The notes under the pieces are model-generated. The model searched no databases and was not told the DNA's origin. It saw nothing but the letters and a program-made list of their open reading frames with translations. A program made the translations under genes and the position numbers. From the NCBI RefSeq assembly GCF_030770395.1, contig NZ_CP132480.1:5774749-5796305 (forward strand): a stretch of 21,557 nt of DNA. Reading direction: 5' to 3'. Below are positions 6,550 to 20,985 of the stretch, piece after piece. How positions within the stretch are numbered: position 1 is the stretch's first letter; each line of letters begins with the position of its first letter. The stretch is from Telluria beijingensis (lineage in GTDB: Bacteria > Pseudomonadota > Gammaproteobacteria > Burkholderiales > Burkholderiaceae_D).

Positions 6550-6570
6550 GCTCGTCTCCATCAAAAAATA

Positions 6571-6585: not shown

Positions 6586-6593
6586 CGTACTTT

Positions 6594-6660: not shown

Positions 6661-6689
6661 TTGCACGTAGGGACATTTCGTTATAAGAT
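6661..6689 (+). promoter_or_regulatory. sigma70 promoter for the crotonase-FCS-thiolase-SDR operon
   Basis: -35 TTGCAC (6661-6666), 17-bp spacer, -10 TAAGAT (6684-6689). The -10 is buried in the 6680-6694 dyad, so a bound regulator would block RNA polymerase. Predicted start is near 6696. Confidence 0.65.
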
Positions 6690-6694
6690 ATAAC
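6680..6694. promoter_or_regulatory. Operator dyad, perfect copy 1
   Basis: GTTATA-AGA-TATAAC is a perfect 6+6 inverted repeat, followed by CATTAT. The same perfect dyad with a different centre (TCG) is found at 20927-20941, and a one-mismatch copy at 14951-14965, each at nearly the same distance from a TTGC-type -35. This is a typical size for a homodimeric repressor of the MarR, TetR or GntR type. The family cannot be told, and no regulator gene is in the window. Confidence 0.7.
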
Positions 6695-6749
6695 CATTAT
6701 GATAAATTACGAAATCGACAGCGCGGCTTCCCGCCAGCGCGCAGACACC

Positions 6750-7538
6750 ATGACCGAACTCCGGAATCCCCCATTGCTGAAGATCGAGATGGTCGGCGCA
6801 GTCGCGCGCATCACGATCTGCCGCGCGGCCAAGCGCAACGCCTTGAGCGACCTGCTGGTGGCCGAGCTGCGTGACTGTTTCGACAACCTTCCTCCCGAGG
6901 CGCGCGCCGCCGTGCTGTGCGGCGAGGGCAGCGCCTTCTGCGCCGGCCTCGACCTGTCCGAAGTACGCGAAAACAACACCACCGAAGCCGTGCTGCACTC
7001 GCGCATGTGGCATGCCGCCTTCGAGCGCATCGCCTTCGGCCGGGTGCCGGTGGTGGTGGTGCTGCACGGGGCGGTCGTCGGCGGCGGCCTGGAACTGGCC
7101 AGCGCCTGCCACATCCGGGTGGCCGAGGAATCTGCCTTTTACGCGCTGCCCGAAGGCTCGCGCGGCCTGTTCGTCGGCGGCGGCGGTTCGGCGCGCATCT
7201 CGCGCCTGATCGGTGTCGCTGCGATGACCGACATGATGCTGACCGGGCGCGTGCTGTCGGCGCAGGAAGGCCATGCGGCCGGCGTCAGCCAGTACCTGGT
7301 GGGCGAGGGCGAGGGCATGGAAAAGGCCATGGGCCTGGCGGCGCGCATTGCCGGCAACGCCCCGATGACCAATTATGGCGTGATGCACGTGCTGCCGCGG
7401 ATCGCCGACCAGTCGGTCCAGGATGGCATGATGACGGAAGCACTGATGGCGGCGGTCGCGGCGAGCGATCCCGATACGCGCGGACGGCTGTCGGCCTTCC
7501 TGGACGCCAAGGCCAACAAGGTCCGCGCGGCAGGCTGA
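6750..7538 (+). CDS. Crotonase-family enoyl-CoA hydratase (paralogue 1)
   Basis: 262 aa from the ATG at 6750. An in-frame ATG at 6699 would add 17 residues, but it lies inside the operator next to the predicted transcription start, and the paralogue at 20986 aligns with the shorter form. No good Shine-Dalgarno precedes 6750, so the start is not certain. The crotonase fold is clear: FCAGLDL (63-69) and GAVVGGGLE (107-115) form the oxyanion hole. Glu135 in ALPEG matches the catalytic Glu144 of rat hydratase. The second catalytic glutamate (Glu164) is replaced by Asp161 in MTDMMLTG. It lacks the general look of feruloyl-CoA hydratase-lyase. In this operon it most likely hydrates hydroxycinnamoyl-CoA to the 3-hydroxy-acyl-CoA, though a hydratase-lyase or isomerase role is possible. 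Confidence 0.85.
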   Translation: MTELRNPPLLKIEMVGAVARITICRAAKRNALSDLLVAELRDCFDNLPPEARAAVLCGEGSAFCAGLDLSEVRENNTTEAVLHSRMWHAAFERIAFGRVPVVVVLHGAVVGGGLELASACHIRVAEESAFYALPEGSRGLFVGGGGSARISRLIGVAAMTDMMLTGRVLSAQEGHAAGVSQYLVGEGEGMEKAMGLAARIAGNAPMTNYGVMHVLPRIADQSVQDGMMTEALMAAVAASDPDTRGRLSAFLDAKANKVRAAG

Positions 7539-7614
7539 TACGCCGACCGCGGCCCGGACTCAAATGCGAACAACAGCATGTGGCAGCGGAATGAATGAAC
7601 CAATGGAGACAAGA

Positions 7615-9462
7615 ATGGAAGCAAACGTGCGTTACCGTCCGGTGGCATTCGGCGACGACAAGGTAGCGGTGCGCCAGCGGGACGGGGCGACCTATGTGAC
7701 GGCGCTGGCGCCGTTGGGCGACTATGCGGTGCGCTCGGTCGACCGCCTGCGCCATTGGGCGGCCATCGCCCCCGACCGCACCTTCATCGCACGCCGCGAG
7801 GAAGGCGGAGCATGGCGCCGCATCAGCTATGCCCAGGCGCTGCACGCCGCGCGCGCCATCGGCCAGGCGCTGCTGGCGCGTGGCCTCGGTCCCGACCGGC
7901 CGGTGATGATCCTGTCCGGGAACGATCTGGAACACGCGCTGCTGGGCCTGGCCTGCCAGTACGTCGGCGTGCCGTATGCCCCGATCTCGCCCGCCTATTC
8001 GCTGGTCTCGAAGGACTACGACAAGCTGCGCCACATCGTCCGGCTGCTCGGGCCGGGCCTGGTGTTCGTGGCCGACGGCAAGGCCTTCGGGCCGGCAATG
8101 GCGGCCGTCTGTGGCCCCGAGGTCGAATTCGTCGTCACCCGCGGCATCCCGGCCGAGCGCGAGGCGACCTTATTCGCGACGCTTGAACAGACCGTGCCGA
8201 CCGATGCAGTCGATGCTGCAATGGAGGCAACCGGCCCTGACACGATCGCCAAGTTCCTGTTCACGTCCGGCTCGACCAAGCTGCCCAAGGCGGTGATCAA
8301 TACCCAGCGCATGTTGTGCGCCAATATGCAGATGCTGCAGCAGGTCTGGCCCTTCCTGCTGGAGGAGCCGCCGGTGCTGCTCGACTGGCTTCCATGGAAC
8401 CATACTTTTGGGGGCAACAAGGATTTCAATATGGTGCTGTTCAACGGCGGCACCCTGTACATCGACGACGGCAAGCCGACCCCGCAGGGCATCGCGACCA
8501 CGATCGCCAACCTGCGCGAGATCGCGCCGACCGTCTACTTCAACGTGCCCAAGGGGTGGGACGACCTGGCCCAGGCGCTGGAGCAGGACATCGCATTGCG
8601 CGACAACTTCTACAGCCGCCTCAAGCTGCAGTTCTACGCCGGCGCCGCGCTGGCCCAGCCGGTCTGGGACAAGCTGCACGCCAGCGCCGAAGCGGCCTGC
8701 GGCGAGCGGATCCGCATGACCACCGGCCTGGGCATGACCGAGACCGCGCCGTGCGCGCTGTTCGCGATGCGCGAAGACGTGCATGCGGGCGAACTGGGCG
8801 TGCCCAGCCCGGGAATGGAAGTCAAGCTGGTGGCCTGCGGCGACAAGATCGAGGTGCGCTACCGCGGCCCGAGCGTCACGCCCGGCTACTGGAAGTCTCC
8901 CGAAGAAACCGCGTCGATGTTCGACGAGGAAGGGTTCTTCTGCTCGGGCGACGCCGTCAAGTGGCTCGATGAAACCCAACCGCACCTGGGCTTCGTGTTC
9001 GACGGCCGGGTGGCCGAGGACTTCAAGCTGTACACCGGCACCTGGGTCAGCGTCGGCCCGCTGCGTGGCCGCGTGATGCACGAAGGCGCGCCGTACGTTC
9101 AGGACGTGGTGATCACTGGGCACGACCGCGCCGACATCGGCCTGTTGATCATCCCGAACCTGGCCCAGTGCCGCGTGCTGGCCGGCCTGCCGCCTGCGAG
9201 TCCGGCGGCCGAGGTGCTGCAGGCAGCCGCGGTGCGCGGCTATTTCCAGGACCTGGTCGACCGCCTGTGGCGCCAGGGCAGCGGCAGCGCGACCCGGGTC
9301 GTGCGCGCCCTGCTGCTGGCCGAGCCACCGTCGATCGACCGCGGCGAGATCACCGACAAGGGCTCGATCAACCAGCGCGCCGTGCTGAGCCACCGCGCCC
9401 ACCTGGTCGAGCTGCTGTACGCGGGGCACGACTCCGCCATTTTCCACGCCAAGACAGACTGA
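7615..9462 (+). CDS. fcs: Feruloyl-CoA synthase (acyl-CoA ligase)
   Basis: 615 aa. It belongs to the ANL superfamily and converts ferulate or a related hydroxycinnamate, ATP and CoA into the CoA thioester. The start at ATG 7615 is chosen for GGAG at 7605-7608; two or three upstream ATGs are less likely. The sequence follows the Fcs pattern: YRPVAFGD near the N-terminus, ILSGNDLEHALL (99-110), YAPISPAYSLVS (121-132), the P-loop TSGSTKLPK (217-225, with Lys where many ligases have Gly), LDWLPWNHTFGGN, the TGLGMTET adenine-binding motif, and GFFCSGDAVKW. The C-terminal domain has DRGEITDKGSINQRAVL, whose Lys is the likely adenylation lysine. It lies 76 bp behind the crotonase and 7 bp before the thiolase. 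Cytoplasmic. The family assignment is firm; the exact preferred cinnamate is inferred. Confidence 0.9.
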   Translation: MEANVRYRPVAFGDDKVAVRQRDGATYVTALAPLGDYAVRSVDRLRHWAAIAPDRTFIARREEGGAWRRISYAQALHAARAIGQALLARGLGPDRPVMILSGNDLEHALLGLACQYVGVPYAPISPAYSLVSKDYDKLRHIVRLLGPGLVFVADGKAFGPAMAAVCGPEVEFVVTRGIPAEREATLFATLEQTVPTDAVDAAMEATGPDTIAKFLFTSGSTKLPKAVINTQRMLCANMQMLQQVWPFLLEEPPVLLDWLPWNHTFGGNKDFNMVLFNGGTLYIDDGKPTPQGIATTIANLREIAPTVYFNVPKGWDDLAQALEQDIALRDNFYSRLKLQFYAGAALAQPVWDKLHASAEAACGERIRMTTGLGMTETAPCALFAMREDVHAGELGVPSPGMEVKLVACGDKIEVRYRGPSVTPGYWKSPEETASMFDEEGFFCSGDAVKWLDETQPHLGFVFDGRVAEDFKLYTGTWVSVGPLRGRVMHEGAPYVQDVVITGHDRADIGLLIIPNLAQCRVLAGLPPASPAAEVLQAAAVRGYFQDLVDRLWRQGSGSATRVVRALLLAEPPSIDRGEITDKGSINQRAVLSHRAHLVELLYAGHDSAIFHAKTD

Positions 9463-9469
9463 GGACACC

Positions 9470-10726
9470 ATGGCAAACGGTTTTTATGCGGATTTCGACG
9501 ATGTCTGGATCCTGGACGGCGTGCGCACGCCGATGGCCGACTACTGCGGCATCTTCGCTGACATCTCGCCCACCGACATGGGCATCAAGGTGGCGCGCGA
9601 AGTGCTGGCCAGGAGCGGAGTCGCGCCGGCCGACATCGGCTCGGTCATCACCGGCAATATGGCGCCGGGCGACTACTTCCAGTATTTCGTGGCGCGCCAT
9701 ATCGGCATGTATGCCGGCGTGCCGCAGCAGGTCGCCTCGATCAATGTGCAGCGCATCTGCGGCACCGGCTTCGAGCTGTTCCGCCAGGCCGGCGACCAGA
9801 TCGCGCGCGGCTATACCGACACCGCGCTGGTGGTCGGCACCGAATCGATGACCCGCAACCCGATCGCCGCCTTCGGCCACCGCAGCGGCTTCCGGCTCGG
9901 CGCGCCGGTCGAGTTCAAGGACTATATGTGGGAAGCGCTGTACGATCCGGCGGCCGGCGTCACCATGCCGCAGACGGCCGAGAACCTGGCGAAGAAGTAC
10001 GGCATCAGCCGCGTCGAGGTCGACGAATACGCCTCGCTCTCGTTCGAGCGCGCGGTGGCGGCGCGCGAAGACGGCTTCCACGCCGGCGAGATCGTCCCGA
10101 TCCGCAACGAGAGCTTCGAGCTCGAGGGCTATGCGACGCGCAGGCTGCGCCTGGCCGGCAAGGTCGAGATGCTGGACCACGACACCCACGCGCGCCGGTC
10201 GCCGGTGGAGGTGCTGGCCCGCCTGCGGCCCCTGTATCCGGATGGAGTGCAAACCGGCGGCAACAGCTCGGCCCTGGTCGACGCGGCCGCGGGTGCGGTC
10301 GTGGTCTCGGGCGAGGTTGCGCGCCAGCGCCAGGGCGATTGCCGCCCGCTGGCGCGCCTGGTGGCCACCGCCACCGTCGGCGTGCCGCCCGAGATCATGG
10401 GCATCGGCCCGGCGCCGGCGATCCGCCTGCTGCTCGAGCGCACCGGTCTTACCCTCGACGATATCGCGCTGTTCGAGATCAACGAGGCGCAGGGCGCCCA
10501 GATCGTCGCCGTCGAGCGCGAACTGGGCCTGGACCGCGCGCGCCTGAACGTGCATGGCGGCGCCATCGCCCTCGGCCATCCGCTGGCGGCCACCGGGGTG
10601 CGCCTGACGATCACGCTGGCGCGCGCGCTGCGCAAGACCAAGGGCCGCTACGGCATCGCCTCGGCCTGCATCGGCGGTGGCCAGGGTATCGCGGTGCTGC
10701 TCGAGAATCCGGACTTCGCCGCCTGA
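9470..10726 (+). CDS. Thiolase (acetyl-CoA acyltransferase type)
   Basis: 418 aa, with GAGGA five bp before the ATG and only 7 bp after the fcs stop. It is a full-length thiolase: nucleophilic Cys97 in RICGTGFELF, Asn338 in the NEAQ motif (usually NEAF), His370 in GGAIALGHPLAATG and Cys400 in SACIGGGQG. All four catalytic positions are kept, so it should be active. Thiolases cleave 3-ketoacyl-CoA with CoA, or run the reverse condensation. Between an arylpropenoyl-CoA ligase and a 3-hydroxyacyl-CoA dehydrogenase, the likely substrate is a 3-aryl-3-oxopropanoyl-CoA, giving aroyl-CoA plus acetyl-CoA. GTGFELF and NEAQGAQ differ from the commonest thiolase sequences (CGSGLQA, NEAFA), which may reflect a bulky aryl substrate; that is a guess. 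Confidence 0.85.
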   Translation: MANGFYADFDDVWILDGVRTPMADYCGIFADISPTDMGIKVAREVLARSGVAPADIGSVITGNMAPGDYFQYFVARHIGMYAGVPQQVASINVQRICGTGFELFRQAGDQIARGYTDTALVVGTESMTRNPIAAFGHRSGFRLGAPVEFKDYMWEALYDPAAGVTMPQTAENLAKKYGISRVEVDEYASLSFERAVAAREDGFHAGEIVPIRNESFELEGYATRRLRLAGKVEMLDHDTHARRSPVEVLARLRPLYPDGVQTGGNSSALVDAAAGAVVVSGEVARQRQGDCRPLARLVATATVGVPPEIMGIGPAPAIRLLLERTGLTLDDIALFEINEAQGAQIVAVERELGLDRARLNVHGGAIALGHPLAATGVRLTITLARALRKTKGRYGIASACIGGGQGIAVLLENPDFAA

Positions 10727-10754
10727 ATACGATACCAAGACAACAGGAGAACAC

Positions 10755-11519
10755 ATGGACATGCAGGGAAAATCGGCGCTGGTGACGGGCGGCGCCTCGG
10801 GCCTGGGCGCCGAGACGGCGCGCCGGCTGGCGCAGGCCGGCGCGAAGGTGGCGGTACTCGACGTCAACCTGGAAGCAGCCGAACAACTGGCGGCCGAAAT
10901 CGGCGGCATCGCCTGCGGTTGCAACATCACCGACACATCCAGCGTGCAGCAGGCGCTGCACGCGGCGCGCGAGGCCCACGGCCCGGCGCGCATCCTGCTC
11001 AACTGCGCCGGCGTCGGAGGCGCCAAGCGCCTGGTGGGCCGCGACGGCGCGCCAATGCCGCTGGAAGACTTCAGCCGCATCGTCGGCATCAACCTGATCG
11101 GCACCTTCAATGCGATCCGCCTCGTGGCGGCCGAGATGGTGGCGTCGGAGCCGCTCGAAGACGGCGAGCGCGGCGTGATCGTCATGACCTCGTCGGCCGC
11201 GGCCTTCGACGGCCAGGTGGGGCAGGAAGCGTATGCGGCCTCGAAGGGCGGCCTGAATGCGCTGACCCTGCCGCTGGCGCGCGACCTGGCCCAGTTCGGG
11301 GTGCGGGTGATGACCATCGCCCCCGGCCTGTTCCTCACGCCGCTGCTGTACAAGCTGCCCGAGGAAGTGCAGCAATCGCTGGCTTCCTCGATTCCCTTCC
11401 CCAAGCGGCTGGGCAAGGCCGACGAGTTCGCGCGGCTGGCGCAGCACGTCGTCGAGAACCTGTCGCTCAATGGCGAGGTGATACGACTCGACGGCGCGCT
11501 GCGCCTGCCGCCGCGCTGA
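10755..11519 (+). CDS. SDR-family 3-hydroxyacyl-CoA dehydrogenase, HSD10-like
   Basis: 254 aa. Start ATG 10755 has AGGAG 5 bp upstream; it lies 28 bp after the thiolase stop. Classical short-chain dehydrogenase: NAD-binding TGGASGLG (11-18), Asp36 after strand beta2 (VLDVN, favouring NAD over NADP), NCAGV (83-87), Asn113, Ser147, and Tyr160-x3-Lys164. The ending GEVIRLDGALRLPP is the signature look of the type II 3-hydroxyacyl-CoA dehydrogenases (HSD17B10 group). It would oxidise the hydroxylated thioester made by the crotonase to the 3-keto form for the thiolase. Its stop codon abuts the stop of the carboxylesterase on the other strand with no base between them. Confidence 0.85.
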   Translation: MDMQGKSALVTGGASGLGAETARRLAQAGAKVAVLDVNLEAAEQLAAEIGGIACGCNITDTSSVQQALHAAREAHGPARILLNCAGVGGAKRLVGRDGAPMPLEDFSRIVGINLIGTFNAIRLVAAEMVASEPLEDGERGVIVMTSSAAAFDGQVGQEAYAASKGGLNALTLPLARDLAQFGVRVMTIAPGLFLTPLLYKLPEEVQQSLASSIPFPKRLGKADEFARLAQHVVENLSLNGEVIRLDGALRLPPR

Positions 11520-13160
11520 TCACCAGCGCAAGGTCGGCTTGCCCGCCAGGATGCGGCGGTCGACCGCGCGGTAGTCCTGTTCGACGCGGCTCTCGACGTC
11601 GAACACCATGGCTGGCCTGGTGCGCGCATCGTAGCGCGGCCAGGCCAGGCGGCCGGAGCCGTTCGGATTGCCGGTCTTCGCGAACGCCAGCCAGGCCCCG
11701 CTCATCTGCCGCGATACCGCGCGGCTGGCCGCATCGTCGGGCACCATCGACGCTGCGGCTTTCATGTTCCCGAACACCAGCGGCACGTCCAGCCCATGCG
11801 GGCTGCCCCAGCGGCCGCCGTCGACCGGCGTCTCGTAACCCAGTTCGTACAGCCAGACCGGCGCCTTGCCGCCGCTGGACTGCGCATCGGCGATATTGAC
11901 GGCATCGAAAATGGTCCACAGGTTCGAGGCGGCGCGCAGGTAGATCCGGCTTGCGTTTTCGTTCGGATAGGCGGCGCGGAAGGCACCGATCGTGCGCGCG
12001 GCTTCCTCAAGAGAGATCGTCCCGCGGTCGCTGCGGTCGTTGCGCATGAAGCCCTCTACCCATTTCGCGGGCAGCTTGTCCCAGGTCAGGGTAAACACGT
12101 CGGCGTCGCGCGCCAGCCGGCTGGCTTCGAGCCGAGTGCTGCCGATCATCAGCGGCACGCCGCTCGACAGGGCCACGGCCTCGGGCGAGAACGGGTGGAA
12201 GGGCAGGCTCACGCCATCGAGCGTCGGGTCGAAGCCGCGGAACTGCGCGCCGCGCGCGACCCGGTGCTGGGCCGAGATCAGCTGGGCGTGCGTTACCTGG
12301 CGCAGGCCCGCCAGGGCGCTCACACCCAGGTCCTGCATCACGGCGCGCATGGCGCGCGTCGCCAGCTCGGGAGACGTCGCCTCGATATACGAGCCGCTCT
12401 GGCAGATCGCCTTGTGGAACAGGCCGCGCGCGGCCGGCATCGCCATCAGCGTGCAGATCTTGGCGCCGCCGCCGGACTGGCCGAACAGCGTGACGTCGTT
12501 CGGATCGCCGCCGAAGGCCGCGATATTGTCGCGCACCCATTCCAGCGCCGCGACCTGGTCCAGCTGGCCGACATTCGCCTTGTCGCGCATGCCGGCGTCG
12601 ATGTCGCCCAGGTAGGCGTAGCCGAGGACGCCGAGCCGGTGATTCAGGCTCACCACCACCACGTCGCCCAGGCGCGCCAGCGCGGCGCCGTCGGTATGCG
12701 GGGCGCCGCCGCTGCCGACGCCGAAGCCGCCGGCATGGATCCACACCATCACCGGACGACGGCGGCCGTCGCTCACCGAGGGCGACCACACATTGAGCAC
12801 CAGGCAGTCTTCCGATTCCGGCTCGCTCACGCGCATCGCGGAAGCCAGGTTGTAAGTGGGTTGGGGGCGCTCGGGCGGCGGCGGGTTCACCGGCGTCTGC
12901 GGCGCGCGGTTGCCATAGCGGTCAGCGCTGCGCACGCCGGTCCAGGGCGCGGGCGGGGCGGGCGGCATGAAGCGGTTGGCGCCGCCGGTCGGGGCGCCGT
13001 AGGGCATGCCGCGGAACACGTCGATGCCGTCGGCGCGTACGCCCTCCACGATGCCATGGCGGGTCTCGACCCGCGGCCTGGCCTGCGGCGCTGCATGAAG
13101 CAGCTTGGGGAGGGTGGAAAGGCCGGCCAGGCCGGCCACCATCTGTCGTCTCGTAATCAT
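11520..13160 (-). CDS. Type-B carboxylesterase, exported
   Basis: 546 aa from ATG 13160, with AGGAG 8 bp upstream; a longer frame from 13202 has no start support. The N-terminus MITRRQMVAGLAGLSTL is Tat-like (twin Arg, weak hydrophobic core, AA cleavage region). Alpha/beta hydrolase of the cholinesterase family: SEDCLVLNVW (116-125), oxyanion HAGGF (142-146, Ala instead of the usual Gly), nucleophile Ser229 in FGQSGGG, Glu345 in STRLEAS, His455 in GSPHGLDVP. The triad is complete. It follows the tannase-family gene by 17 bp, so both are one operon driven from the 14811-15058 region. The likely role is cleaving aromatic or feruloyl esters in the periplasm; it could equally serve other esters. 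Confidence 0.85.
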   Translation of the reverse strand: MITRRQMVAGLAGLSTLPKLLHAAPQARPRVETRHGIVEGVRADGIDVFRGMPYGAPTGGANRFMPPAPPAPWTGVRSADRYGNRAPQTPVNPPPPERPQPTYNLASAMRVSEPESEDCLVLNVWSPSVSDGRRRPVMVWIHAGGFGVGSGGAPHTDGAALARLGDVVVVSLNHRLGVLGYAYLGDIDAGMRDKANVGQLDQVAALEWVRDNIAAFGGDPNDVTLFGQSGGGAKICTLMAMPAARGLFHKAICQSGSYIEATSPELATRAMRAVMQDLGVSALAGLRQVTHAQLISAQHRVARGAQFRGFDPTLDGVSLPFHPFSPEAVALSSGVPLMIGSTRLEASRLARDADVFTLTWDKLPAKWVEGFMRNDRSDRGTISLEEAARTIGAFRAAYPNENASRIYLRAASNLWTIFDAVNIADAQSSGGKAPVWLYELGYETPVDGGRWGSPHGLDVPLVFGNMKAAASMVPDDAASRAVSRQMSGAWLAFAKTGNPNGSGRLAWPRYDARTRPAMVFDVESRVEQDYRAVDRRILAGKPTLRW

Positions 13161-13177
13161 CGTCTGGTCTCCTGGGA

Positions 13178-14810
13178 TTACTTCGTATTGGCGCCGATCC
13201 ACGGATAGCGGTCGTCGGGATCGTTCGCCGGGGCGACGCCGCGGAAGTTAGCGGCGTCGTCGATGCTGCCCTTGCCGGTGTACTGCGCGCGTACCGGATA
13301 GGCGTAGATGGGACGCGTACGGACGCCGCCGTCGGGCTTGACGGCCGCCGCGGTCACGCTGTCCGGGGCCACGCCAGCCTCGACCCAGTTGACGATCGCG
13401 CCCAGGAAGTTCGCCTCGTAGGGCATGCTGCCGCCGCGGCAGTGGTAGACGCCGGGCAGCATGAACACCCGCATCGTGTCGCGCGTTTTTGCGGTGCCGC
13501 CCAGCAGGTCGCGCACCGCCTGGTAATAGTGGAGCGTCGCGTACGGGCCAGAGGACGGGTCGGCCGCGCCCTCCCAGACGATCATCTTGCCGCCGCGGTC
13601 GCGGAAGGCGCGCAGGTCGGGATCGTAAGCGTCGTAGTGGGCGCCGAGCTGGCGTATTTCTTGCGCTTCCTCGGCCGTGAACTTGAAGTCGCCCAGCCTG
13701 ACGCCGTCCGGTCGTTTGGCGCCGTAGATCATGTTGCCAAAATAGCCCTCTACCGTGGCCGGCGTCGTGGGGCGGGCCCAGGTCAGTTCCGAGCCATGGG
13801 CCAGGCCCCCCGGGAACAGGTGGCGGCCGTCAGGCGCAACCGGGCCGCTGTACAGCGCGCGCGGTGCGCACTTGCGCGCCTCCCAGGCATTGGCCGGGAC
13901 GTTCGGCGCCGTCGCCGGGGCAGGCGAGGGTGGCGGGATCGAAGGTGCAGGCGCGGGGATCGTCGATCTGGCCGTCGACCAGGCCGTCCAGGCCATCGCA
14001 GGCGCGCATGACGGCCGCGTGCAGGGTCTTGACCGCGCTCGCGCTCATGATCGGGGCGCCGGCGGCATCGCGGTCGTGGGCCAACTGCCAGGCGAATTTG
14101 AGGAAGGCGGTGCTGATGTAGTTGGCCGGCGCGCCGGCCACCAGGCCGTCGAAGTCGCCGGGGTAGCGCTGCGCTTCCTTCATCGCTTCGCGTCCGCCGT
14201 CCGAGCAGCCCTGGAAGTAGGAGTGATCCGGTTGCTTGCCGTAGAAAGCGCCGATGATGGCCTTGGCGGCGATCGACACCACGTGTACGCCGCGTTCGGC
14301 GAAGTCGTCCTGCAGCGCGCGGTTGTCGCGGGCCCACAGGCTGCCGGTGGACGCCGCGCTGTGGCCGGCGTCGGTGGCGGCGACGGCGAAGGCTCCGCTC
14401 GCGGCCATCGCGTCGTCGCAGCGGGGCGAGGGTTCGGGGCGGATGAAACCGCAGTTGCCGCCGCAGCCGATTTGAAGGTAACGGCCGGTGTAACCGATGG
14501 TCGGCAGGCGCAGCTCGAACTTGACCTGGGGCCAGACATAGCCCGAGACCAGGCAGTGTTCGGCGCGCGCGCCGTCCTGCGCCACCAGTCGCGCACTGGC
14601 GATCTCGGTGGGGGCATTGGGCAGCCGGTCGAAGCGGTTCAGCTGCGCCGCGTCGCAGGCCAGCACCGGCTTGACGATGGCCTTGGCCGGCAGGGTCAGC
14701 ATGGGCACCGGGGTGGCGCCGGCATTGGCTGCGGCGTGCGGTGGCGCCAGCAGCGCCAGCATTGACAACAGCATGGCGCGCCCGAGGCGCGCGATCGGAT
14801 CGTGAACCAT
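13178..14810 (-). pseudogene. Tannase/feruloyl esterase family protein, frameshifted
   Basis: Start ATG 14810 with AGGAG 5 bp upstream. Residues 1-~30 form a signal peptide ending AAANA. The first part (14810-~13864) holds IGCGGNCGFI (114-123) and the nucleophile motif GCSDGG with Ser203. The second part (~13855-13178, another frame) continues with LYSGPVAPDGRHLFPGG, the catalytic Asp in GAADPSSGP and the His in LPGVYHCRGG. Together these make the CS-D-HC arrangement of tannases and feruloyl esterases, in which Cys next to Ser and Cys next to His pair. The frame changes between ...QVRTARA and LYSGP, in a GCGCGCGCG tract at 13855-13863. Two missing bases would restore both frame and normal spacing. 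As read, translation stops at 13830, before Asp and His, so it would be inactive unless the tract is misread. The enzyme would release ferulate from esters. Confidence 0.8.
13855..13863. repeat. GC dinucleotide tract at the frameshift
   Basis: GCGCGCGCG. Adding one GC unit would join the two tannase reading frames with the residue count expected for the family. The tract is a plausible slippage or sequencing-error site. Confidence 0.6.
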
Positions 14811-14873
14811 CTCGTCTCCTGTTCTGGTTTTGGTTGTGAATTTATTCTACGTCAGAACTTTTAAAATATAAGC

Positions 14874-14888
14874 ATTTTATCGAATAAC
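14874..14888. promoter_or_regulatory. Weak operator-like dyad on the tannase side
   Basis: ATTTTA-tcg-AATAAC matches 9 of 12 positions of the GTTATA-n3-TATAAC dyad and contains TTAT-tcg-ATAA-like symmetry on the other strand. It lies in the AT-rich part of the tannase/TonB divergent region. I could not identify a good -35/-10 pair for the tannase direction. Confidence 0.3.
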
Positions 14889-14930
14889 TATCTATTGGTT
14901 GCGCATCCGCCCAGGCCGTGACAAAAGCGC

Positions 14931-14958
14931 TTGCACCCGCCGTGGATATGGTTATAAA
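14931..14958 (+). promoter_or_regulatory. sigma70 promoter for the TonB receptor gene
   Basis: -35 TTGCAC (14931-14936), 16-bp spacer, -10 TATAAA (14953-14958). The AAGCGCTTGCAC context around the -35 matches that at 6661. The leader would be about 95 nt, ending in AAGGAG 7 bp before the ATG. Confidence 0.6.
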
Positions 14959-14965
14959 CTAAAAC
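14951..14965. promoter_or_regulatory. Operator dyad, copy 2 (one mismatch)
   Basis: GTTATA-AAC-TAAAAC, one base from perfect. Including flanks, TGG...CCA extends the symmetry (TGGTTATA / TAAAACCA). It overlaps the -10 as do the copies at 6680 and 20927. Confidence 0.6.
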
Positions 14966-15058
14966 CATTAAAAGAAATAACAAAAACTCTGCGCACCTCG
15001 ACAAGGCGCAGCGCGAACACGCCGCCAGGCGTATCGACGATCAACAAGGAGACTAGCC

Positions 15059-18034
15059 ATGCCAATGCGTCATAGCAGTACATCGAGCGGCACTTCGTTC
15101 GACCCGACCCCGTTCGCCATCACAACCCCAGGGATTCCCTTCCGGCGCAGCACGGTCGCCATCGCGGTGCTGTGCGCGCTGGTGGCCGGCAGCGCGCACG
15201 CGCAGGAGGCATCCGCGCCTGCCACCGCCACCGCCCCCGGCCAGGCCAGCGCCGCGCCACCGCCGCCACCGCCACCGCCGGTCGTGGCCGAGGCGGTGCA
15301 GGAAGTGGTCATCACGGGCAGCCAGATCCGGGGCGTCAGCGCGGCCGGTTCCAAGTCGGTGGTGCTGGACCGCGAAACCCTGGTCACGACCGGCTACAAC
15401 AATCCGATCGATGTGCTCAAGACGGTGCCGCTGGTGCAGGGTCTCGGCTATGGCGACGTGCCGAGCACGGCGCAAAACGGTTCGGCCAACGTCCAGCGCG
15501 GCTCTACCATCAGCCTGCGCGGCTTGAGCAGCAGCGCGACGCTGGTGCTGATCGACGGCCGCCGCATCGCGCCGACCGGTAACGTGACCACCTTCACCGA
15601 AGCCAACCAGCTGCCGGTATCGTTCATCGAACGAATCGATGTGGTGGCCGACGGTGCGTCGGCGATCTATGGCTCGGACGCGATCGCGGGCGTGGTCAAC
15701 TACATCACCCGCAAGTCCTACCAAGGCGTGGAGATCACGCCGCGCTACACCCACACGAACGGCTACGACCAGCGTGGCGCCTCGATCGTCGCCGGCCATA
15801 CCGTCAAGCAGCTGGGCGGCCTGGGCCGGCTGAGCATCGTCGCTGCCTACGACTACGACAAGCGCGACTCGATGCTGCAGGGTTCGACGCCCTTCGCGCG
15901 TCAGGACCTGACCCGCTTCGGCGGCCTGGACAACCGGATCCGCACCAACCTGGCCACCAGCGCGGCGCCGGGCAACATCATCGTCGCCGGCACCGGCATC
16001 AACCCGGTGTTCCCGAGCGCGGGCAGCTTTACCTATTACGGCATCCCGGCCGGCTACGGCGGCACCGGCCTGGATGGCTCGCAGTTGCTGCGCAACCAGC
16101 CGAACCTGCTCGATGCCAGCGACTACAACGACCTGATCCCCGAGACCGAGCGCAACCAGGGCTCGCTGAACCTCAACCTGCAAATCGATCCGAAGACCAA
16201 GCTCTATTACCAGGGCTACTACAACCGCAGCGAGAATACCTCGCTCAGCCTGGCGCAGCCGAATGCAACGCTCACCCTGCCGGCCAGCAGCCCGTACTAC
16301 ATCCCCAATGTGCCGGGCCTGGCGCCGGGCGCGCCGCAGGCGGTGTCGTTCTCGTTCCTGAACCACGTCGGGCGCGTGATCCCCGACCGCGGCCATTCAC
16401 TGGCCGAGGGCTACGGCAATACCATCGGCCTGCAGCGCGACTTCGAGAACAAATGGCGCGCCGAGGCGGTCTTCAGCGCCACCGGCACCAAGACCTGCGC
16501 CAACTGCATCCCGGCGCTGAACGGGAATATCCACACCCAGGCGCTGCAGGCGGCGCTGAACGACGGCAGCTTCAATCCTTTCAGCTCGACGCCGGCATCG
16601 AGCGATGTGCTGGGTCGCTTCCTGGTCGAGGGCAACGACCGCAACCGGGTCAAGATGCAGCAGGCTTCGCTGCGCTTCGACGGCCCGCTGTTCGCGCTGC
16701 CGGGCGGGATGGTGCGCGCCGCGGTGGGCGTCGAGAGCCTGGGGCTGGAACAGTGGCGCGATTCGATCGGCATCCGGGCCACCTCGGACACCGTCGGCGC
16801 CTATGGCAAGCGCCGCATCAACGCGGTCTACGGCGAGCTGTCGGTGCCGCTGGTCGGTCCCGAGAACAGCCTGCCGCTGATGCAGCGCTTCTCGCTCAAC
16901 CTGGCGGCGCGCTCGCAGAAGTACTCGGACGTGGGCAAGACCTCGAACCCCAAGATCGGCTTCGTCTGGGGCGTGAACGGCGACCTGGCGATCCGCGGCG
17001 CGGCCGGCACCTCGTTCCGCGCGCCGGACCTGACCGACGCCAACACCACCTTCTTCTCGTCGGTCAGCACCCAGCTGATCGCCAATGCCGCGGGCGATCC
17101 GGCGATTCCGCTGTCGAACGCCGCGACCCGGCAGAGCTATGTGCTGCGCCTGGGCGGCTCGAACCCCGAGCTGACGCCCGAGAAAGCCAAGAACTTCTCG
17201 CTCGGCGCCGACTACAAGCCGTGGTTCGTCGACGGCCTGCGCCTGGGCGCCAGCGTGTACCGGATCAAGTACGAAAACCAGATCATCGGCCTGCAGACGG
17301 TGGCCAACAGCTTCCTGGCCAGCCCGACCAACCGCGCCGTGTACGCTCCCTACATCACCCCGGCGGCGCAGCCGGCCGGCTGCGTCGCGGGCGACCGCAG
17401 CACCTACAACCCGATCTATGCCCAGGCCTACGGTGCGCCGTCGCTCAGCATGCCGGACGAATCGAACGCCTGCCGCCTGACCGCGCTGTTCATCGCGCGC
17501 AATACCAATGCCGCCAGCACGGTGCAGGACGGGGTCGACTTCGACTTCGGCTACGAGATGGACACCTCGTATGGCCGCTTCAACGCCGACGTCAACGCGA
17601 CCAAAATCCTGAATAACAAGGTGCGGGTGTCGCCGCTGGCGTCGGAACGCGAGGACCTGGACCGGATCAACGTGCCGGTGTCGATGCGCGGCCGTGCCGC
17701 GCTCGCCTGGACCCAGGGCCAGTGGAATGCCGGCCTGGCAATGAACTACGTCGGCTCCTACCTGAACGACCTGCCGCTGACCATCGGCGGCGTGACCCAG
17801 CCGCGGGTCGAGATCGACGCGTGGAAGACCTTCGACCTGAACCTGGCCTGGCGCTCGCCGGCCAAGACCGGCGCCTGGGGCGGCGTGCGCTTCTCGCTGA
17901 ACGTGCAGAACCTGTTCGACCGCGATCCGCCAGTGGTGCTGTCGACCAATAACAATGCGGCGTATGCCTTCGATCCGCAGAATGCGAATGTGCTGGGCAG
18001 GGTGGTGACGGTGCAGATGACCAAGGCGTTCTGA
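15059..18034 (+). CDS. TonB-dependent outer-membrane receptor
   Basis: 991 aa. Start ATG 15059 with AAGGAG 7 bp upstream (ATG 15065 also possible). The N-terminus is unusual: about 30 polar residues precede the signal core (AIAVLCALVAG) that ends AHA at 48. The mature start is Ala/Pro-rich with eight prolines (67-74), then a TonB-box-like EVVITGSQI (82-90). The plug follows (NPIDVLKTVP, ISLRGLSSSATLVLIDGRR, ERIDVVADGASAIYGSDAIA, GVVNYITRK) and then a long 22-strand-type barrel ending in VVTVQMTKAF with a terminal Phe. It resembles the receptors common in Xanthomonas, Caulobacter and sphingomonads for plant-derived compounds. It carries a strong terminator 20 bp after its stop. In this cluster it probably takes up aromatic esters or conjugates; the ligand is not provable. 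Confidence 0.9.
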   Translation: MPMRHSSTSSGTSFDPTPFAITTPGIPFRRSTVAIAVLCALVAGSAHAQEASAPATATAPGQASAAPPPPPPPPVVAEAVQEVVITGSQIRGVSAAGSKSVVLDRETLVTTGYNNPIDVLKTVPLVQGLGYGDVPSTAQNGSANVQRGSTISLRGLSSSATLVLIDGRRIAPTGNVTTFTEANQLPVSFIERIDVVADGASAIYGSDAIAGVVNYITRKSYQGVEITPRYTHTNGYDQRGASIVAGHTVKQLGGLGRLSIVAAYDYDKRDSMLQGSTPFARQDLTRFGGLDNRIRTNLATSAAPGNIIVAGTGINPVFPSAGSFTYYGIPAGYGGTGLDGSQLLRNQPNLLDASDYNDLIPETERNQGSLNLNLQIDPKTKLYYQGYYNRSENTSLSLAQPNATLTLPASSPYYIPNVPGLAPGAPQAVSFSFLNHVGRVIPDRGHSLAEGYGNTIGLQRDFENKWRAEAVFSATGTKTCANCIPALNGNIHTQALQAALNDGSFNPFSSTPASSDVLGRFLVEGNDRNRVKMQQASLRFDGPLFALPGGMVRAAVGVESLGLEQWRDSIGIRATSDTVGAYGKRRINAVYGELSVPLVGPENSLPLMQRFSLNLAARSQKYSDVGKTSNPKIGFVWGVNGDLAIRGAAGTSFRAPDLTDANTTFFSSVSTQLIANAAGDPAIPLSNAATRQSYVLRLGGSNPELTPEKAKNFSLGADYKPWFVDGLRLGASVYRIKYENQIIGLQTVANSFLASPTNRAVYAPYITPAAQPAGCVAGDRSTYNPIYAQAYGAPSLSMPDESNACRLTALFIARNTNAASTVQDGVDFDFGYEMDTSYGRFNADVNATKILNNKVRVSPLASEREDLDRINVPVSMRGRAALAWTQGQWNAGLAMNYVGSYLNDLPLTIGGVTQPRVEIDAWKTFDLNLAWRSPAKTGAWGGVRFSLNVQNLFDRDPPVVLSTNNNAAYAFDPQNANVLGRVVTVQMTKAF

Positions 18035-18055
18035 TCGAACGGCGATAAACGAGGA

Positions 18056-18082
18056 AGCCCGGGAGATCCCGGGCTTTTTTTT
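18056..18082 (+). terminator. Rho-independent terminator of the TonB receptor gene
   Basis: AGCCCGGG-agat-CCCGGGCT, an 8-bp GC-rich stem followed by a run of eight T (18075-18082), 21 bp past the stop codon. Confidence 0.9.
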
Positions 18083-18105
18083 GCCCGTATATCCTGGAGG
18101 ACCCT

Positions 18106-18210
18106 CGTCGTTCCCGCGGAGGCGGGAACCCAAGTCTTCCGCGCCGCCGATAACGTCAATCGTAGCGTCGATGCTAGCGAACTTGGGTTCCCGCCTTCGC
18201 GGGAACGACG
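18106..18210. repeat. REP-like inverted pair (BIME-type) between convergent genes
   Basis: Two 30-bp arms (18106-18135 and 18181-18210) are inverted copies with a single mismatch, separated by 45 bp. Each arm is itself a hairpin with GTTCCCGC paired to GCGGGAAC around a 4-base loop. This is the form of bacterial REP/BIME elements, which are often mobilised by RAYT transposases; none is in the window. It lies between two facing terminators. Confidence 0.75.
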
Positions 18211-18244
18211 TGGAGGGGGGCGTGCGTTGCCGGGTGTGCGGGCG

Positions 18245-18272
18245 AAAAAAAGGCCTGGTCGCCCAGGCCTTT
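18245..18272 (-). terminator. Rho-independent terminator of the P450-MFS operon
   Basis: A perfect 10-bp stem, AAAGGCCTGG-tcgc-CCAGGCCTTT (18249-18272), with seven A on the plus strand at 18245-18251 giving a T-run on the minus strand. It lies 25 bp past the MFS stop. Confidence 0.85.
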
Positions 18273-18297
18273 CGCTCCAGCGCAGCGCCTCAGCGCT

Positions 18298-19599
18298 TCA
18301 GCGTGTCGACACCGGCGCCGCATTCCCCCCGCGCGGCCCGCGCGCCTGGGTCCACACCAGCAGCAGGGCCCCCACCAGCAGCATCCCCGCCATCGCATAG
18401 ATCGGCACCGAGAACGACCCGGTCGACTGCCGCACCACGCCGATCGCATACGGTCCGAACAGGCCGCCGAGGTTGCCGAAGAAGTTGATCATCGTGATGC
18501 CGTGGCGCGCCGAATCCTTGTCCAGGAAGCCGGTCGGGATGGTCCAGAACACGCTCTGCGCGCCGCCCAGGCCCAGGCCTGCGACGAACAGCAGCACCAG
18601 CGCCACCGCGCCATTGGCAGGCACCGTGGCCAGCGCCATGCAGGCGCTGCACAGCAGCAGGGGCAGCAGGACGTGCAGGAAGCGTTCGTTGCTGCGGTCG
18701 GAATGCTTCGAATTCCAGTACATGCCGATGCCGATGCCCAGCCACGGCACCGCGCTGATCACGCCGATCTCGAACGGCGAACTGGCGGCGAACTGGCGCG
18801 CTACCTGGGGCAGCCAGTACAGGATGGCGTAGGCGCCCGCGATCAGCGAGAACCAGACGCCGGCCGCGGCCCACAGGCGGGTGCTGCGCAGGATGCCGGC
18901 GCCGCTGCCGATGCTGGCGGCGGAGGTCTCGGCGTCGTCGCGCGCGATCTGCTGGCGCAACCACTCCTTGTCGGCGTCGTCCAGCCAGCGCGCCTGCTCC
19001 GGGCTGTCGACGAAGACGCGCCAGGCGAATACCGCGAACGCGATCGTCATCAGGCCCTCGGCCATGAACATCCAGCGCCAGCCGGCCAGCCCGATCGGAT
19101 TATCGACCGACATCAGCCAGCCCGAGAACGGCCCGCCGAGCACCACCGACAGCGGCACCGCCAGCATGGTCATGCCGATCGCGGCGGCGCGGAAGCGCTT
19201 GGGCATCCAGCGGCTGCACAGGTAGACCACGCCCGGCGCGAAGCCCGCTTCGGCCAGGCCAAGCAGGAAGCGCAGTGCATATAGCGTCATGGCGTCCTCG
19301 ACGAAGGTCATGCTGAAGGCGAACAGGCCCCACAACAGCACCGACACCGCGATCCAGCGCCGCGCGCCGTAGCGGTGCAGCAGGTACATGCTGGGGAACT
19401 GGAACACCAGGTAGCCGGCGAAGAAGGCGCTCACCGCCAGGCCGTACTGCGAGGGCGTGAGCCCCAGTTCGGCATTCATCTGCAGGGCCGCGAAGCTCAG
19501 GTTGGCGCGGTCCAGCGAGCTCACGATCAGCAGCAGCACGAAGGGCAGGATGATGCGGCGGCGGATCTTGTTCACCACCAGGTCGGCGGGGGCGCTCAT
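18298..19599 (-). CDS. MFS transporter, anion:cation symporter type
   Basis: 433 aa from ATG 19599, which overlaps the P450 stop as ATGA; a longer frame to 19755 only runs into the P450 gene. Inner-membrane protein with about 12 hydrophobic segments. Features include SSLDRANLSFA in the first helix region, RYGARRWIAVSVLLWGLFA after helix 2, LRFLLGLAEAGFAPG (helix 4), GWRWMFMAEG, and a cytoplasmic loop rich in charge between the halves (about residues 195-225: DSPEQARWLDDADKEW). These are typical of the anion:cation symporter group (phthalate, hexuronate and 4-hydroxyphenylacetate permeases). Translational coupling to the P450 and its place in the aromatic island suggest proton-driven uptake of an aromatic acid such as ferulate or vanillate. 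Confidence 0.85.
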   Translation of the reverse strand: MSAPADLVVNKIRRRIILPFVLLLIVSSLDRANLSFAALQMNAELGLTPSQYGLAVSAFFAGYLVFQFPSMYLLHRYGARRWIAVSVLLWGLFAFSMTFVEDAMTLYALRFLLGLAEAGFAPGVVYLCSRWMPKRFRAAAIGMTMLAVPLSVVLGGPFSGWLMSVDNPIGLAGWRWMFMAEGLMTIAFAVFAWRVFVDSPEQARWLDDADKEWLRQQIARDDAETSAASIGSGAGILRSTRLWAAAGVWFSLIAGAYAILYWLPQVARQFAASSPFEIGVISAVPWLGIGIGMYWNSKHSDRSNERFLHVLLPLLLCSACMALATVPANGAVALVLLFVAGLGLGGAQSVFWTIPTGFLDKDSARHGITMINFFGNLGGLFGPYAIGVVRQSTGSFSVPIYAMAGMLLVGALLLVWTQARGPRGGNAAPVSTR

Positions 19600-20789
19600 G
19601 CCGCCACCTCGAAGCGCGCCGGCACGTACCAGGGCCCCAGCTCGGGGAAGGGACTCATCAGCACTTCGCCGTCGATCTCCAGGTCCACCGTTCCCTTCAG
19701 CAGTTCGTCGAGTGCGATCTGCAGCTCCTTGCGCGCCAGCGCGGTGCCGGCGCAATAGTGCGGCCCGCGGCCGAAGGCCAGGTGTTCGCGGATGTTAGGG
19801 CGGTCGAGGATGAAGCGGTCGGGCTCGGGGAAGACGTCCTCGTCGCGGTTGGCCGAGGCCATGATCAGGGCGATCGCCTCGTCCTTCCTGATCAGGCGGC
19901 CTCCGATCTCGACGTCGGCGCGGGCGGTGCGGGCGAAGCCGCGGTAGGGCGTGTACAGGCGCAGGAATTCCTCGACCGCGGCCGGGATCAGGGACGGATC
20001 GGCGCGCAGCTGCGCCTGCAGGTCCTTGTGGCGCGCCAGGTGCACGACCATATTGCCGATCATGACCATCGGCGCGACGATGCCGACCACCAGCACCTGC
20101 CGGATCGCGCCGACCACCATGTCCTCGGGCAGCGGCGCGCCCTCGTGGCGCACCGCCAGGAAGGCGCTGACCGGGTCCTCGGCCGGGTCCATCGGCGTGG
20201 CCTTGCGCATGGCGACCAGGGTGCGCGCCATATCGTACAGCACGAAGCTGGTCTCCTTCATTTTCTCGGGATCGGCCGACTCGACCGCCTTGACGAAGGC
20301 CGGGCCGGCCTCGGCCAGTTGCGCTTCTAGTTCTGGCGGCAGGTGCATCCAGATGCTGAACACCTTGACCTGGAAGATGCTGGCGAAATCGCCGCACACG
20401 TCGCCATGGCCGCGCGCCAGCAGCGGCGCCAGTTCGGCGCGGATGCAGGCGCGGATGGTGGGCTCGAGGGCCGCGATCTTCTGTTCCGACAGCAGCGGGT
20501 TGAGCGCCGCGCGGTAGGGCGTGTGTTCGGGCGGGTCGAAGTGCAGCGGCGGGCGGCGCCCCGAGAACGCCACCTTCGGCACCACGTTCTGCACCGAGGT
20601 GATGAACATGGCCGGGTCGGAAAACACCCGCTGCACGTCCTCGTACTTCGTCAGCGCCCAGAAGCCGCCGAGCGCCTCGCTGCGCGCCACCGGGCACTGC
20701 GCGCGCAGGCGCGCGTACTCCCGGTGGGCGGTATCGAATTCTTCCTTGACCAGTGGATCGTAGTCCTGCCCTGGATGGTGTACTTGCAT
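19596..20789 (-). CDS. Cytochrome P450, atypical I-helix
   Basis: 397 aa, the normal size of a soluble bacterial class I P450. Start ATG 20789 with GGAG 5 bp upstream. Heme ligand Cys346 in FGRGPHYCAG; ExxR as Glu274-FL-Arg277; HFDPPEHTPYR (83-93) is the usual C-helix stretch. The I-helix normally reads AGxE/DTT. Here the aligned residues are VGIVAP (235-240), so the acid and the threonine that deliver protons to bound oxygen are Val238 and Ala239. This is seen in the sequence; what it means for catalysis is open. No ferredoxin or reductase gene is next to it inside the window. It leads an operon with the MFS gene under a copy of the CoA-transferase promoter. A likely job is O-demethylation or hydroxylation of an aromatic acid, by context only. 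Confidence 0.85.
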   Translation of the reverse strand: MQVHHPGQDYDPLVKEEFDTAHREYARLRAQCPVARSEALGGFWALTKYEDVQRVFSDPAMFITSVQNVVPKVAFSGRRPPLHFDPPEHTPYRAALNPLLSEQKIAALEPTIRACIRAELAPLLARGHGDVCGDFASIFQVKVFSIWMHLPPELEAQLAEAGPAFVKAVESADPEKMKETSFVLYDMARTLVAMRKATPMDPAEDPVSAFLAVRHEGAPLPEDMVVGAIRQVLVVGIVAPMVMIGNMVVHLARHKDLQAQLRADPSLIPAAVEEFLRLYTPYRGFARTARADVEIGGRLIRKDEAIALIMASANRDEDVFPEPDRFILDRPNIREHLAFGRGPHYCAGTALARKELQIALDELLKGTVDLEIDGEVLMSPFPELGPWYVPARFEVAA

Positions 20790-20841
20790 GGCGTCTCCTC
20801 GTGTGCGAAAGGTGGGGCGTGGCGCCCCGTTCTGGAATTTA

Positions 20842-20856
20842 GTTATTATTAATAAG
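20842..20856. promoter_or_regulatory. Candidate secondary operator for the P450 promoter
   Basis: GTTATT-att-AATAAG, 9 of 12 match to the dyad, at the same offset from the minus-strand promoter as the 10/12 site at 6571-6585. Confidence 0.35.
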
Positions 20857-20864
20857 TATGTTTG

Positions 20865-20893
20865 AGTATAACTATAGTCGGCGGGTGGTTCAA
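20865..20893 (-). promoter_or_regulatory. sigma70 promoter for the P450-MFS operon
   Basis: Minus strand: -35 TTGAAC (20893-20888), 17-bp spacer, -10 TATACT (20870-20865), identical hexamers and spacing to 6594-6622. Confidence 0.7.
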
Positions 20894-20907
20894 GCGCTGC
20901 AAGAAGC

Positions 20908-20936
20908 TTGCGCGTCCGGATGTATTGTTATATCGT
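20908..20936 (+). promoter_or_regulatory. Promoter of the second crotonase gene
   Basis: -35 TTGCGC (20908-20913), 17-bp spacer, -10 TATCGT (20931-20936) inside the operator dyad. Only 14 bp separate this -35 from the divergent one, against 38 bp in the 6622-6661 copy. Confidence 0.55.
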
Positions 20937-20941
20937 ATAAC
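20927..20941. promoter_or_regulatory. Operator dyad, perfect copy 3
   Basis: GTTATA-TCG-TATAAC, followed by CATTAT as in the copy at 6680. The arms are identical between the two while the centre differs (TCG versus AGA), which is what selection for a dimeric protein site would give. Confidence 0.7.
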
Positions 20942-20985
20942 CATTATTAAAGATCACAAAAATATCCTTGGAGACTGCGATAACC

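What the first reader, a model, noticed from the sequence alone, without database searches (positions are those of the whole stretch)
6680..20941. One operator dyad repeated at all three divergent promoters of the island
GTTATA-n3-TATAAC is perfect at 6680-6694 and 20927-20941 and has one mismatch at 14951-14965. Each copy covers the -10 of the rightward promoter and lies 19-20 bp after the start of a TTGC-type -35. Weaker copies (9-10 of 12) sit at 6571, 14874 and 20842. Arms are kept while centres vary (AGA, TCG, AAC), as expected of a protein site. This defines a small regulon: CoA-transferase, crotonase-fcs-thiolase-SDR, tannase-esterase, TonB receptor, P450-MFS and the second crotonase. 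The regulator is not in the window and its family is unknown.
Basis: partly seen in the sequence, partly recalled or inferred. Interest (0 to 1): 0.75.

Follow-up and report, generated by a model that had tools for sequence, protein, structure and literature searches.

The report
Ferulate regulon operator and its repressor
A short DNA tag repeated in front of the gene groups of this island is very probably the landing site of one repressor protein, encoded elsewhere in the same genome, that would keep genes for using plant phenolic acids switched off until they are needed.

Summary
The dyads are real and far above chance. In the whole 6.0 Mb genome only these three places match at one mismatch or fewer. 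A dyad at up to 2 mismatches also stands just before crotonase-fcs in 21 of 80 related loci. In Paraburkholderia, Caballeronia and Trinickia relatives its homologue is divergent from crotonase-fcs with the dyad between them. Of 62 same-genus genomes, the 7 with this marR are the 7 that have the extended site at one mismatch or fewer. Its closest solved relative is CouR, the p-coumaroyl-CoA-released repressor of R. palustris. The regulon probably also includes a TonB/MFS locus at 5.30 Mb and marR itself. New here: the operator is usually double, with a second RTTAT-n5-ATAAY core exactly 16 bp away at 8 of 9 own promoters. Binding, ligand and expression are untested. Verdict: new member of a known kind, with a double operator worth testing.

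The parts
6680..6694 (+). strong operator core over the -10 of the crotonase 1 - fcs promoter (GTTATA-AGA-TATAAC)
   Evidence: exact dyad; top score with a matrix from relatives only; second (29.5) with the 14-site matrix
6696..6710 (+). second core, 16 bp downstream (9 of 10 core letters)
6661..6666 (+). TTGCAC, proposed -35 of the rightward promoter
   Evidence: read; consensus only
6571..6601 (-). pair of cores (6571-6585 and 6587-6601) over -10 and start of the leftward CoA-transferase promoter TTGAAC-17-TATACT
14951..14965 (+). operator core with one mismatch over the -10 of the TonB receptor promoter
14967..14981 (+). second core, 16 bp downstream (9 of 10)
14858..14888 (-). pair of cores (14858-14872, 7 of 10; 14874-14888, 9 of 10) in the leftward tannase promoter; no good -35 seen
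20927..20941 (+). strong operator core over the -10 of the crotonase 2 promoter (GTTATA-TCG-TATAAC)
20943..20957 (+). second core, 16 bp downstream (9 of 10)
20842..20872 (-). pair of cores (20842-20856, 9 of 10; 20858-20872, 8 of 10) in the leftward P450 promoter TTGAAC-17-TATACT
4981..6564 (-). CoA-transferase (PF01144)
6699..7538 (+). crotonase 1 (PF00378); first ATG of the ORF, the true start is probably further in
7564..9462 (+). fcs-like acyl-CoA synthetase (PF00501)
   Evidence: just under the NF009232 acyl-CoA synthetase cut-off, 756.3 against 777
9470..10726 (+). thiolase (PF00108/PF02803)
10677..11519 (+). short-chain dehydrogenase (PF00106)
11520..13202 (-). carboxylesterase (PF00135)
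13830..14810 (-). tannase/feruloyl esterase family (PF07519)
15059..18034 (+). TonB-dependent receptor
18298..19755 (-). MFS transporter
19596..20789 (-). cytochrome P450
20986..21555 (+). crotonase 2, first 190 residues; cut by the window end, which is an assembly join

Best explanation
The dyads are operators of a CouR-like MarR-family repressor encoded at G000:C1:5707755-5708261. A dimer binds an RTTAT-n5-ATAAY core over the -10 of each promoter, and a second core exactly 16 bp downstream can take a second dimer, so RNA polymerase is kept off the six promoters of the island, the TonB/MFS pair at 5.30 Mb and probably marR itself. When a hydroxycinnamate such as ferulate or p-coumarate enters and the fcs-like ligase makes its CoA thioester, the thioester releases the repressor, and genes for uptake, ester cleavage and side-chain breakdown come on together. 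Shown by computation: the sites, their rarity, their conservation, the 16-bp pairing and the co-occurrence with this marR. Inferred: binding by this protein, repression rather than activation, and the thioester ligand.
For: Chance and rarity. A dyad at up to 2 mismatches within 1.2 kb before fcs in 21 of 80 related loci. Matrices without window sequence rank the window sites and the 5.30 Mb site on top. marR is divergent from crotonase-fcs with a perfect TAGTTAT-n5-ATAACTA between them in L037-L041. Of 62 same-genus genomes 7 have marR, and the same 7 have the extended site at up to 1 mismatch. Of 195 family genomes 15 have marR at E up to 1e-25 and all 15 have fcs; 11 of the 15 have the exact core about 1 kb before fcs against 2 of 26 fcs genomes without marR having it within 10 kb; in the other 4 the matrix finds its best site just before crotonase. 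CouR is the best PDB match by sequence (E 5.4e-20, next 9.2e-11), by profile and by fold. The marR promoter has its own core pair. In Trinickia (L040) further sites precede an MFS-porin pair and a vanillate-demethylase-like gene.
Against: No binding, ligand or expression data. In this genome marR is not next to the island (about 66 kb as assembled, across an assembly join). Five of 21 hand-picked named genomes with a marR homologue show no dyad at up to 2 mismatches before fcs (L026, L031, L045, L054, L058). Two family genomes have an exact core near fcs but no marR at E up to 1e-25 (G025, G039). 59 of 80 fcs-like loci lack the dyad before fcs (3 of them hold under 1.2 kb of upstream DNA). Island, marR and sites travel together, so co-occurrence alone cannot prove that this protein binds; genomes are also related by descent. 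No NCBIfam equivalog cut-off is met by the MarR protein.
Confidence: 0.8

Rival explanations
1. Right regulator, other signal or sign: the MarR protein binds these sites but answers another metabolite (a free acid, an aroyl-CoA such as vanilloyl-CoA, 4-hydroxybenzoate, protocatechuate), or acts as an activator or in both ways.
For: marR sits beside a pcaH-type and a PcaR-family gene. MarR-fold neighbours in the fold search bind protocatechuate (PcaV) or 4-hydroxybenzoate (HosA). FerR of P. fluorescens is listed as both repressor and activator (passages of PMC10458429). In G218 marR lies between a pobA-like gene and an MFS gene with a site, and no fcs was found in the 17 kb fetched.
Against: CouR, with a CoA-thioester ligand, is the best match by sequence and fold. 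All 15 of 15 marR genomes of the family set have fcs. Cores lying over -10 and start fit repression.
Confidence: 0.13
2. The sites belong to another DNA-binding protein of the same pathway (for instance the LysR or IclR proteins seen near some sites), and marR merely travels with the island.
For: A LysR gene adjoins a site in L029; an IclR gene adjoins marR; marR is far from the island here.
Against: The gene divergent across the site in L037-L041 is marR. The exact core near fcs follows marR among fcs-bearing genomes: 11 of 15 against 2 of 26. A 15-bp palindrome with a 5-bp spacer is the geometry of the RHA1 CouR box (passage of PMC4737184).
Confidence: 0.05
3. The dyad is not a regulator site but promoter architecture or a recently copied promoter segment that happens to look palindromic.
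For: Two of the three strong copies precede paralogous crotonases, and the left arm overlaps the -10.
Against: Both arms are kept in unrelated promoters and genera while spacers change. A -10 element need not be palindromic nor have a second copy exactly 16 bp away. 55 of 62 same-genus genomes, those without marR, have no extended site at up to 1 mismatch.
Confidence: 0.02

Closest known systems
CouR of Rhodopseudomonas palustris (PDB 6c28, 6c2s, 6c9t)
   Same: MarR repressor of p-coumarate CoA-ligase and hydratase genes, released by p-coumaroyl-CoA (passage of PMC10458429); best sequence and fold match of the own MarR protein.
   Different: 36% identity over the aligned fold. Its operator letters could not be read here (papers not held), so operator likeness is untested.
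CouR of Rhodococcus jostii RHA1 (PDB 5cyv)
   Same: Several promoters of one hydroxycinnamate regulon each carry an inverted repeat with a 5-bp spacer (cATTGA-n5-TCAATg); [quoted passage not shown]
   Different: Other arm sequence; box over the -35 rather than the -10; one box shared by the divergent couN/couR promoters where here each promoter has its own. Distant protein (E 5e-7).
FerC of Sphingobium sp. SYK-6
   Different: Operator sequences and spacing of IR1/IR2 were not seen; protein not compared here.
FerR (P. fluorescens) and HcaR (Acinetobacter, Agrobacterium)
   Same: MarR-type control of hydroxycinnamate genes by CoA thioesters (passages and table of PMC10458429).
   Different: HcaR protein 3k0l is a distant match (E 5.1e-5); the others were not compared.

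Membership tests
MarR family of transcriptional regulators | MarR winged-helix domain | tested here: met
   PF01047 in all eight orthologues scanned; the own protein matches MarR chains in PDB and its model (pLDDT 84, pTM 0.70) matches MarR folds
CouR/FerC/FerR/HcaR-type hydroxycinnamoyl-CoA repressor | closest to a proven member by sequence and fold | tested here: met
   6c28 CouR E 5.4e-20, next 9.2e-11; 6c2s CouR first by Foldseek
CouR/FerC/FerR/HcaR-type hydroxycinnamoyl-CoA repressor | gene linked to a hydroxycinnamate CoA-ligase cluster | tested here: met
   linked in relatives; in the own genome about 66 kb away; all 15 marR genomes of 195 have fcs. That the ligase acts on hydroxycinnamates is inferred
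CouR/FerC/FerR/HcaR-type hydroxycinnamoyl-CoA repressor | palindromic operator at the promoters of the target genes | tested here: met
   geometry as the RHA1 CouR box, other letters
CouR/FerC/FerR/HcaR-type hydroxycinnamoyl-CoA repressor | binds the operator and is released by the CoA thioester | not testable with these tools
   needs purified protein
RHA1-type CouR | Arg36 and Arg38 that bind DNA and the CoA phosphates | not tested
   PMC4737184 says neither is conserved in the R. palustris and SYK-6 homologues (passage), so their absence would not exclude membership of the wider group
NCBIfam named MarR equivalogs (Saro_0803, BilQ, HpaR) | score above the curated cut-off | tested here: not met
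   77.2 of 200, 55.0 of 125, 47.7 of 121.2 bits

The most novel reading that the evidence does not exclude
Each operator is a built-in pair of palindromes with a strict 16-bp pitch (about one and a half helical turns), so that two MarR dimers sit on nearly opposite faces of the DNA over the -10 and the start of transcription and bind cooperatively. Which of the two cores is the better one differs between promoters of the same regulon, which would grade how tightly each operon is held.
Probability: 0.45. Interest if true: 0.6.

Novelty: new member of a known kind. Interest (0 to 1): 0.5.

Why it matters
It gives a candidate repressor, its operator and a list of target promoters for plant-phenolic use in Massilia and other Burkholderiales. 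None of the titles and abstract starts listed by my ten paper searches (open-access library only, several lists capped far below the number of hits) describes this regulon, which is weak evidence that it is undescribed. Outer-membrane receptors, esterases and a P450 appear to share a switch with the core pathway, which makes their substrates guessable. The fixed 16-bp double operator makes a specific cooperative-binding model testable with one gel shift.

Tried and rejected
I used pattern searches with reversed-pattern controls and matrices on the window plus five own-genome stretches (89,804 bases, one overlapping the window). Looser patterns are noise: GTTAT-n5-ATAAC at up to 1 mismatch gives 37 places against 30 for the control.

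Regulator in the flanks: of 20 flanking and 5.30 Mb proteins scanned (not every ORF) the only regulator of a classical type was a LysR gene about 15 kb to the right. It was not followed further. The 2-mismatch place at 5822805 (L024:12912) is a palindrome before what reads like a mazE-type antitoxin gene (by eye), not this operator. The first structure prediction, without alignment, was too poor to use (pLDDT 59). Rfam gave 0 matches in the window and L024. The primary papers on R. palustris CouR are not held. Two paper searches for paired MarR operators listed nothing that I could use. The offset test also shows a weaker excess at 19 bp (z 6.1; z 3.5, 0 of 1000 shuffles) that I cannot explain.
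Full report
Observation. Nine matches at up to 3 mismatches occur in the window against a mean of 0.44 in shuffles. The first base of the TTGC-type -35 lies 19, 20 and 19 bp before GTTATA. In the whole genome (6,017,275 bases) the 12-base dyad occurs at up to 1 mismatch only at these three places. At up to 2 mismatches the count, 24, is below the reversed-pattern control, 35, so weak matches elsewhere mean nothing by themselves. The longer block GTTATA-n3-TATAAC-CATTA at up to 3 mismatches adds one further place, 5303794 on the minus strand with 2 mismatches; the control had none. That place lies in the divergent region between a TonB receptor and an MFS gene, which again has an element on either side.

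Conservation. With the fcs-like protein as query I obtained 80 loci of named genomes, the best 80 of 185. In 21 of the 80 a dyad at up to 2 mismatches lies within 1.2 kb before the fcs match, i.e. before its crotonase. In 2 it occurs elsewhere only and in 57 not at all; 3 loci hold less than 1.2 kb upstream. The 21 include Massilia, other Oxalobacteraceae, Paraburkholderia, Caballeronia, Trinickia, Ramlibacter, Acidovorax and Curvibacter. The common core is RTTAT-n5-ATAAY, in several genera TAGTTAT-n5-ATAACTA. A matrix from 27 such sites, with no window sequence, ranks centres 6687, 14958, 20934 and the 5.30 Mb site first in the window plus five own-genome stretches, then the weak copies. A second matrix from 14 sites in eight loci not labelled Oxalobacteraceae (one is an unassigned proteobacterial MAG) gives 29.6, 29.5, 28.2, 22.4 and 18.6 to 20934, 6687, 20849, 14958 and 6578. 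Outside the window its best distinct scores are 26.3 and 20.8 (the 5.30 Mb pair), 21.8 (start of the iclR gene beside marR), 17.9 (the marR promoter) and 15.9 (the mazE-like promoter). So the matrix is specific but not perfectly clean.

Regulator. A motif filter on small ORFs of the 80 loci showed a recurring MarR-like gene. Pfam confirmed it in the eight orthologues scanned; the ninth protein of that call was an unrelated MarR from L034. In L037-L041 it is divergent from crotonase-fcs and a perfect TAGTTAT-n5-ATAACTA lies between the two. The own genome has one clear orthologue, 70% identical to that of M. terrae (E 2.5e-69; next hit 1.7e-5), at 5707755-5708261 on the minus strand, about 66 kb left of the window as assembled. 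Its neighbours are an iclR gene above the PcaR/PcaU/PobR cut-off and a protocatechuate 3,4-dioxygenase beta-type gene, the latter cut by the locus end and at 255.5 bits against a cut-off of 296.4.

Co-occurrence. In 195 family genomes marR (E up to 1e-25) is in 15, the exact pattern GTTAT-n5-ATAACYA in 48 and fcs (E up to 1e-150) in 41. All 15 marR genomes have fcs. Comparing positions across, the exact core lies 0.86-0.97 kb upstream of fcs in 11 of the 15. In the other 4 (G037, G051, G060, G174) the matrix finds its best site just before crotonase. Of the 26 genomes with fcs but no marR, 7 have the exact core somewhere and 2 (G025, G039) within 10 kb of fcs, next to FAD-monooxygenase genes. 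In the 62 held same-genus genomes marR is in 7 and the extended site at up to 2 mismatches in 9: the same 7, each with a site at 1 mismatch or fewer, plus 2 single 2-mismatch hits that look like chance. Fisher tests ignore kinship. In 27 named genomes chosen by hand, 21 have a marR homologue at E up to 1e-15; 16 of these 21 show the dyad before fcs and 5 do not (L026, L031, L045, L054, L058). Telluria aromaticivorans (L036) has no marR homologue and no site before fcs.

Family. The own MarR protein matches CouR of R. palustris best among solved chains (E 5.4e-20, next 9.2e-11), as does the 12-sequence profile. The model from a 39-row alignment (pLDDT 84, pTM 0.70) matches 6c2s, CouR on a DNA duplex, first (E 3.6e-10, 36% identity). 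No NCBIfam equivalog cut-off is reached. RHA1 CouR uses cATTGA-n5-TCAATg boxes at four promoters (passage of PMC4737184): the same 15-bp geometry with other arms.

Double operator. The core recurs at exactly +16 (z 13.1) and -16 (z 8.2) of 42 sites while 15 and 17 bp are near background. Many of the 42 are orthologues, so z overstates independence, and a weaker excess at +19 (z 6.1) is unexplained. At nine own promoters (three rightward and three leftward in the window, the 5.30 Mb pair, marR) 8 of 9 have a partner with 7-9 of 10 core letters at 16 bp, and 0 of 1000 shuffles reached the mean; the exception is the MFS promoter at 5.30 Mb with 4 of 10. The marR promoter has ATTAT-n5-ATAAT within 9-bp arms and a 9-of-10 partner. 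In the leftward CoA-transferase and P450 promoters (TTGAAC-17-TATACT) the upstream core overlaps the -10 as in the rightward ones and the downstream core is the better one; in the tannase promoter the upstream core is better and no good -35 is seen. Sixteen bp is about 1.5 turns, so two dimers would lie on nearly opposite faces (inference). Centre distances between rightward and leftward elements vary (109, 93, 85 and 105 bp), so each promoter seems to have its own operator.

Function. The gene families fit uptake and breakdown of hydroxycinnamate esters: TonB receptors, tannase-type and carboxyl esterases, acyl-CoA synthetase, crotonase, SDR and thiolase (a beta-oxidation set), CoA-transferase, P450 and MFS. 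Downstream of the second crotonase lies a 4-hydroxybenzoate 3-monooxygenase above its curated cut-off. Sites in Trinickia (L040) precede an MFS-porin pair and a vanillate-demethylase-like gene, and a site in L039 precedes a XylR-type activator gene. That ferulate or p-coumarate is the substrate and its CoA ester the signal is inferred from these and from CouR; the name fcs rests on family and context, not on a curated model.

Caveats. The genome record is a chain of contigs joined by single N bases: an N stands immediately before and after the window, and 108 bp are repeated on both sides of the right-hand join. Distances to marR and to the 5.30 Mb locus rest on the assembly's order. All promoter elements are consensus readings.

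Noticed in passing
window start and end; L022:19749 and L023:6307: Single N bases stand directly before and after the window, and 108 bp are repeated on both sides of the right-hand one: the window is one contig of a joined assembly, and the apparent frame break of crotonase 2 is an assembly join.
   Followed up: yes
G000:C1:5303794-5303918 (L025:8795-8919): Second TonB receptor/MFS divergent pair with operator cores on both sides; orthologous TonB receptor lies next to marR in M. yuzhufengensis (L027).
   Followed up: partly
L110:6967 (G000:C1:5706959-5706973): A fairly good core (21.8 with the 14-site matrix) overlaps the start of the PcaR-type iclR gene beside marR; target or chance is open.
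   Followed up: no
L022:4421-11031: About 9-15 kb left of the window lie GH43 and GH67 glycosidase, MFS and mandelate-racemase-like genes, a hemicellulose-use cluster.
   Followed up: no
L024:12860-12925: Palindrome repeated before a gene that reads like a mazE-type antitoxin (by eye).
   Followed up: no
L143:6548 and L144:6160: Strong sites (39.5, 39.7) before FAD-monooxygenase genes near fcs in two genomes with no marR at E up to 1e-25; their regulator is unknown.
   Followed up: partly
L029:14967, L032:14902, L035:14902: A variant dyad with outer letters C and G (CTTATA-n3-TATAAG-CATTA) about 5 kb downstream of the fcs start; in L029 it lies between a LysR gene and a TonB receptor.
   Followed up: no
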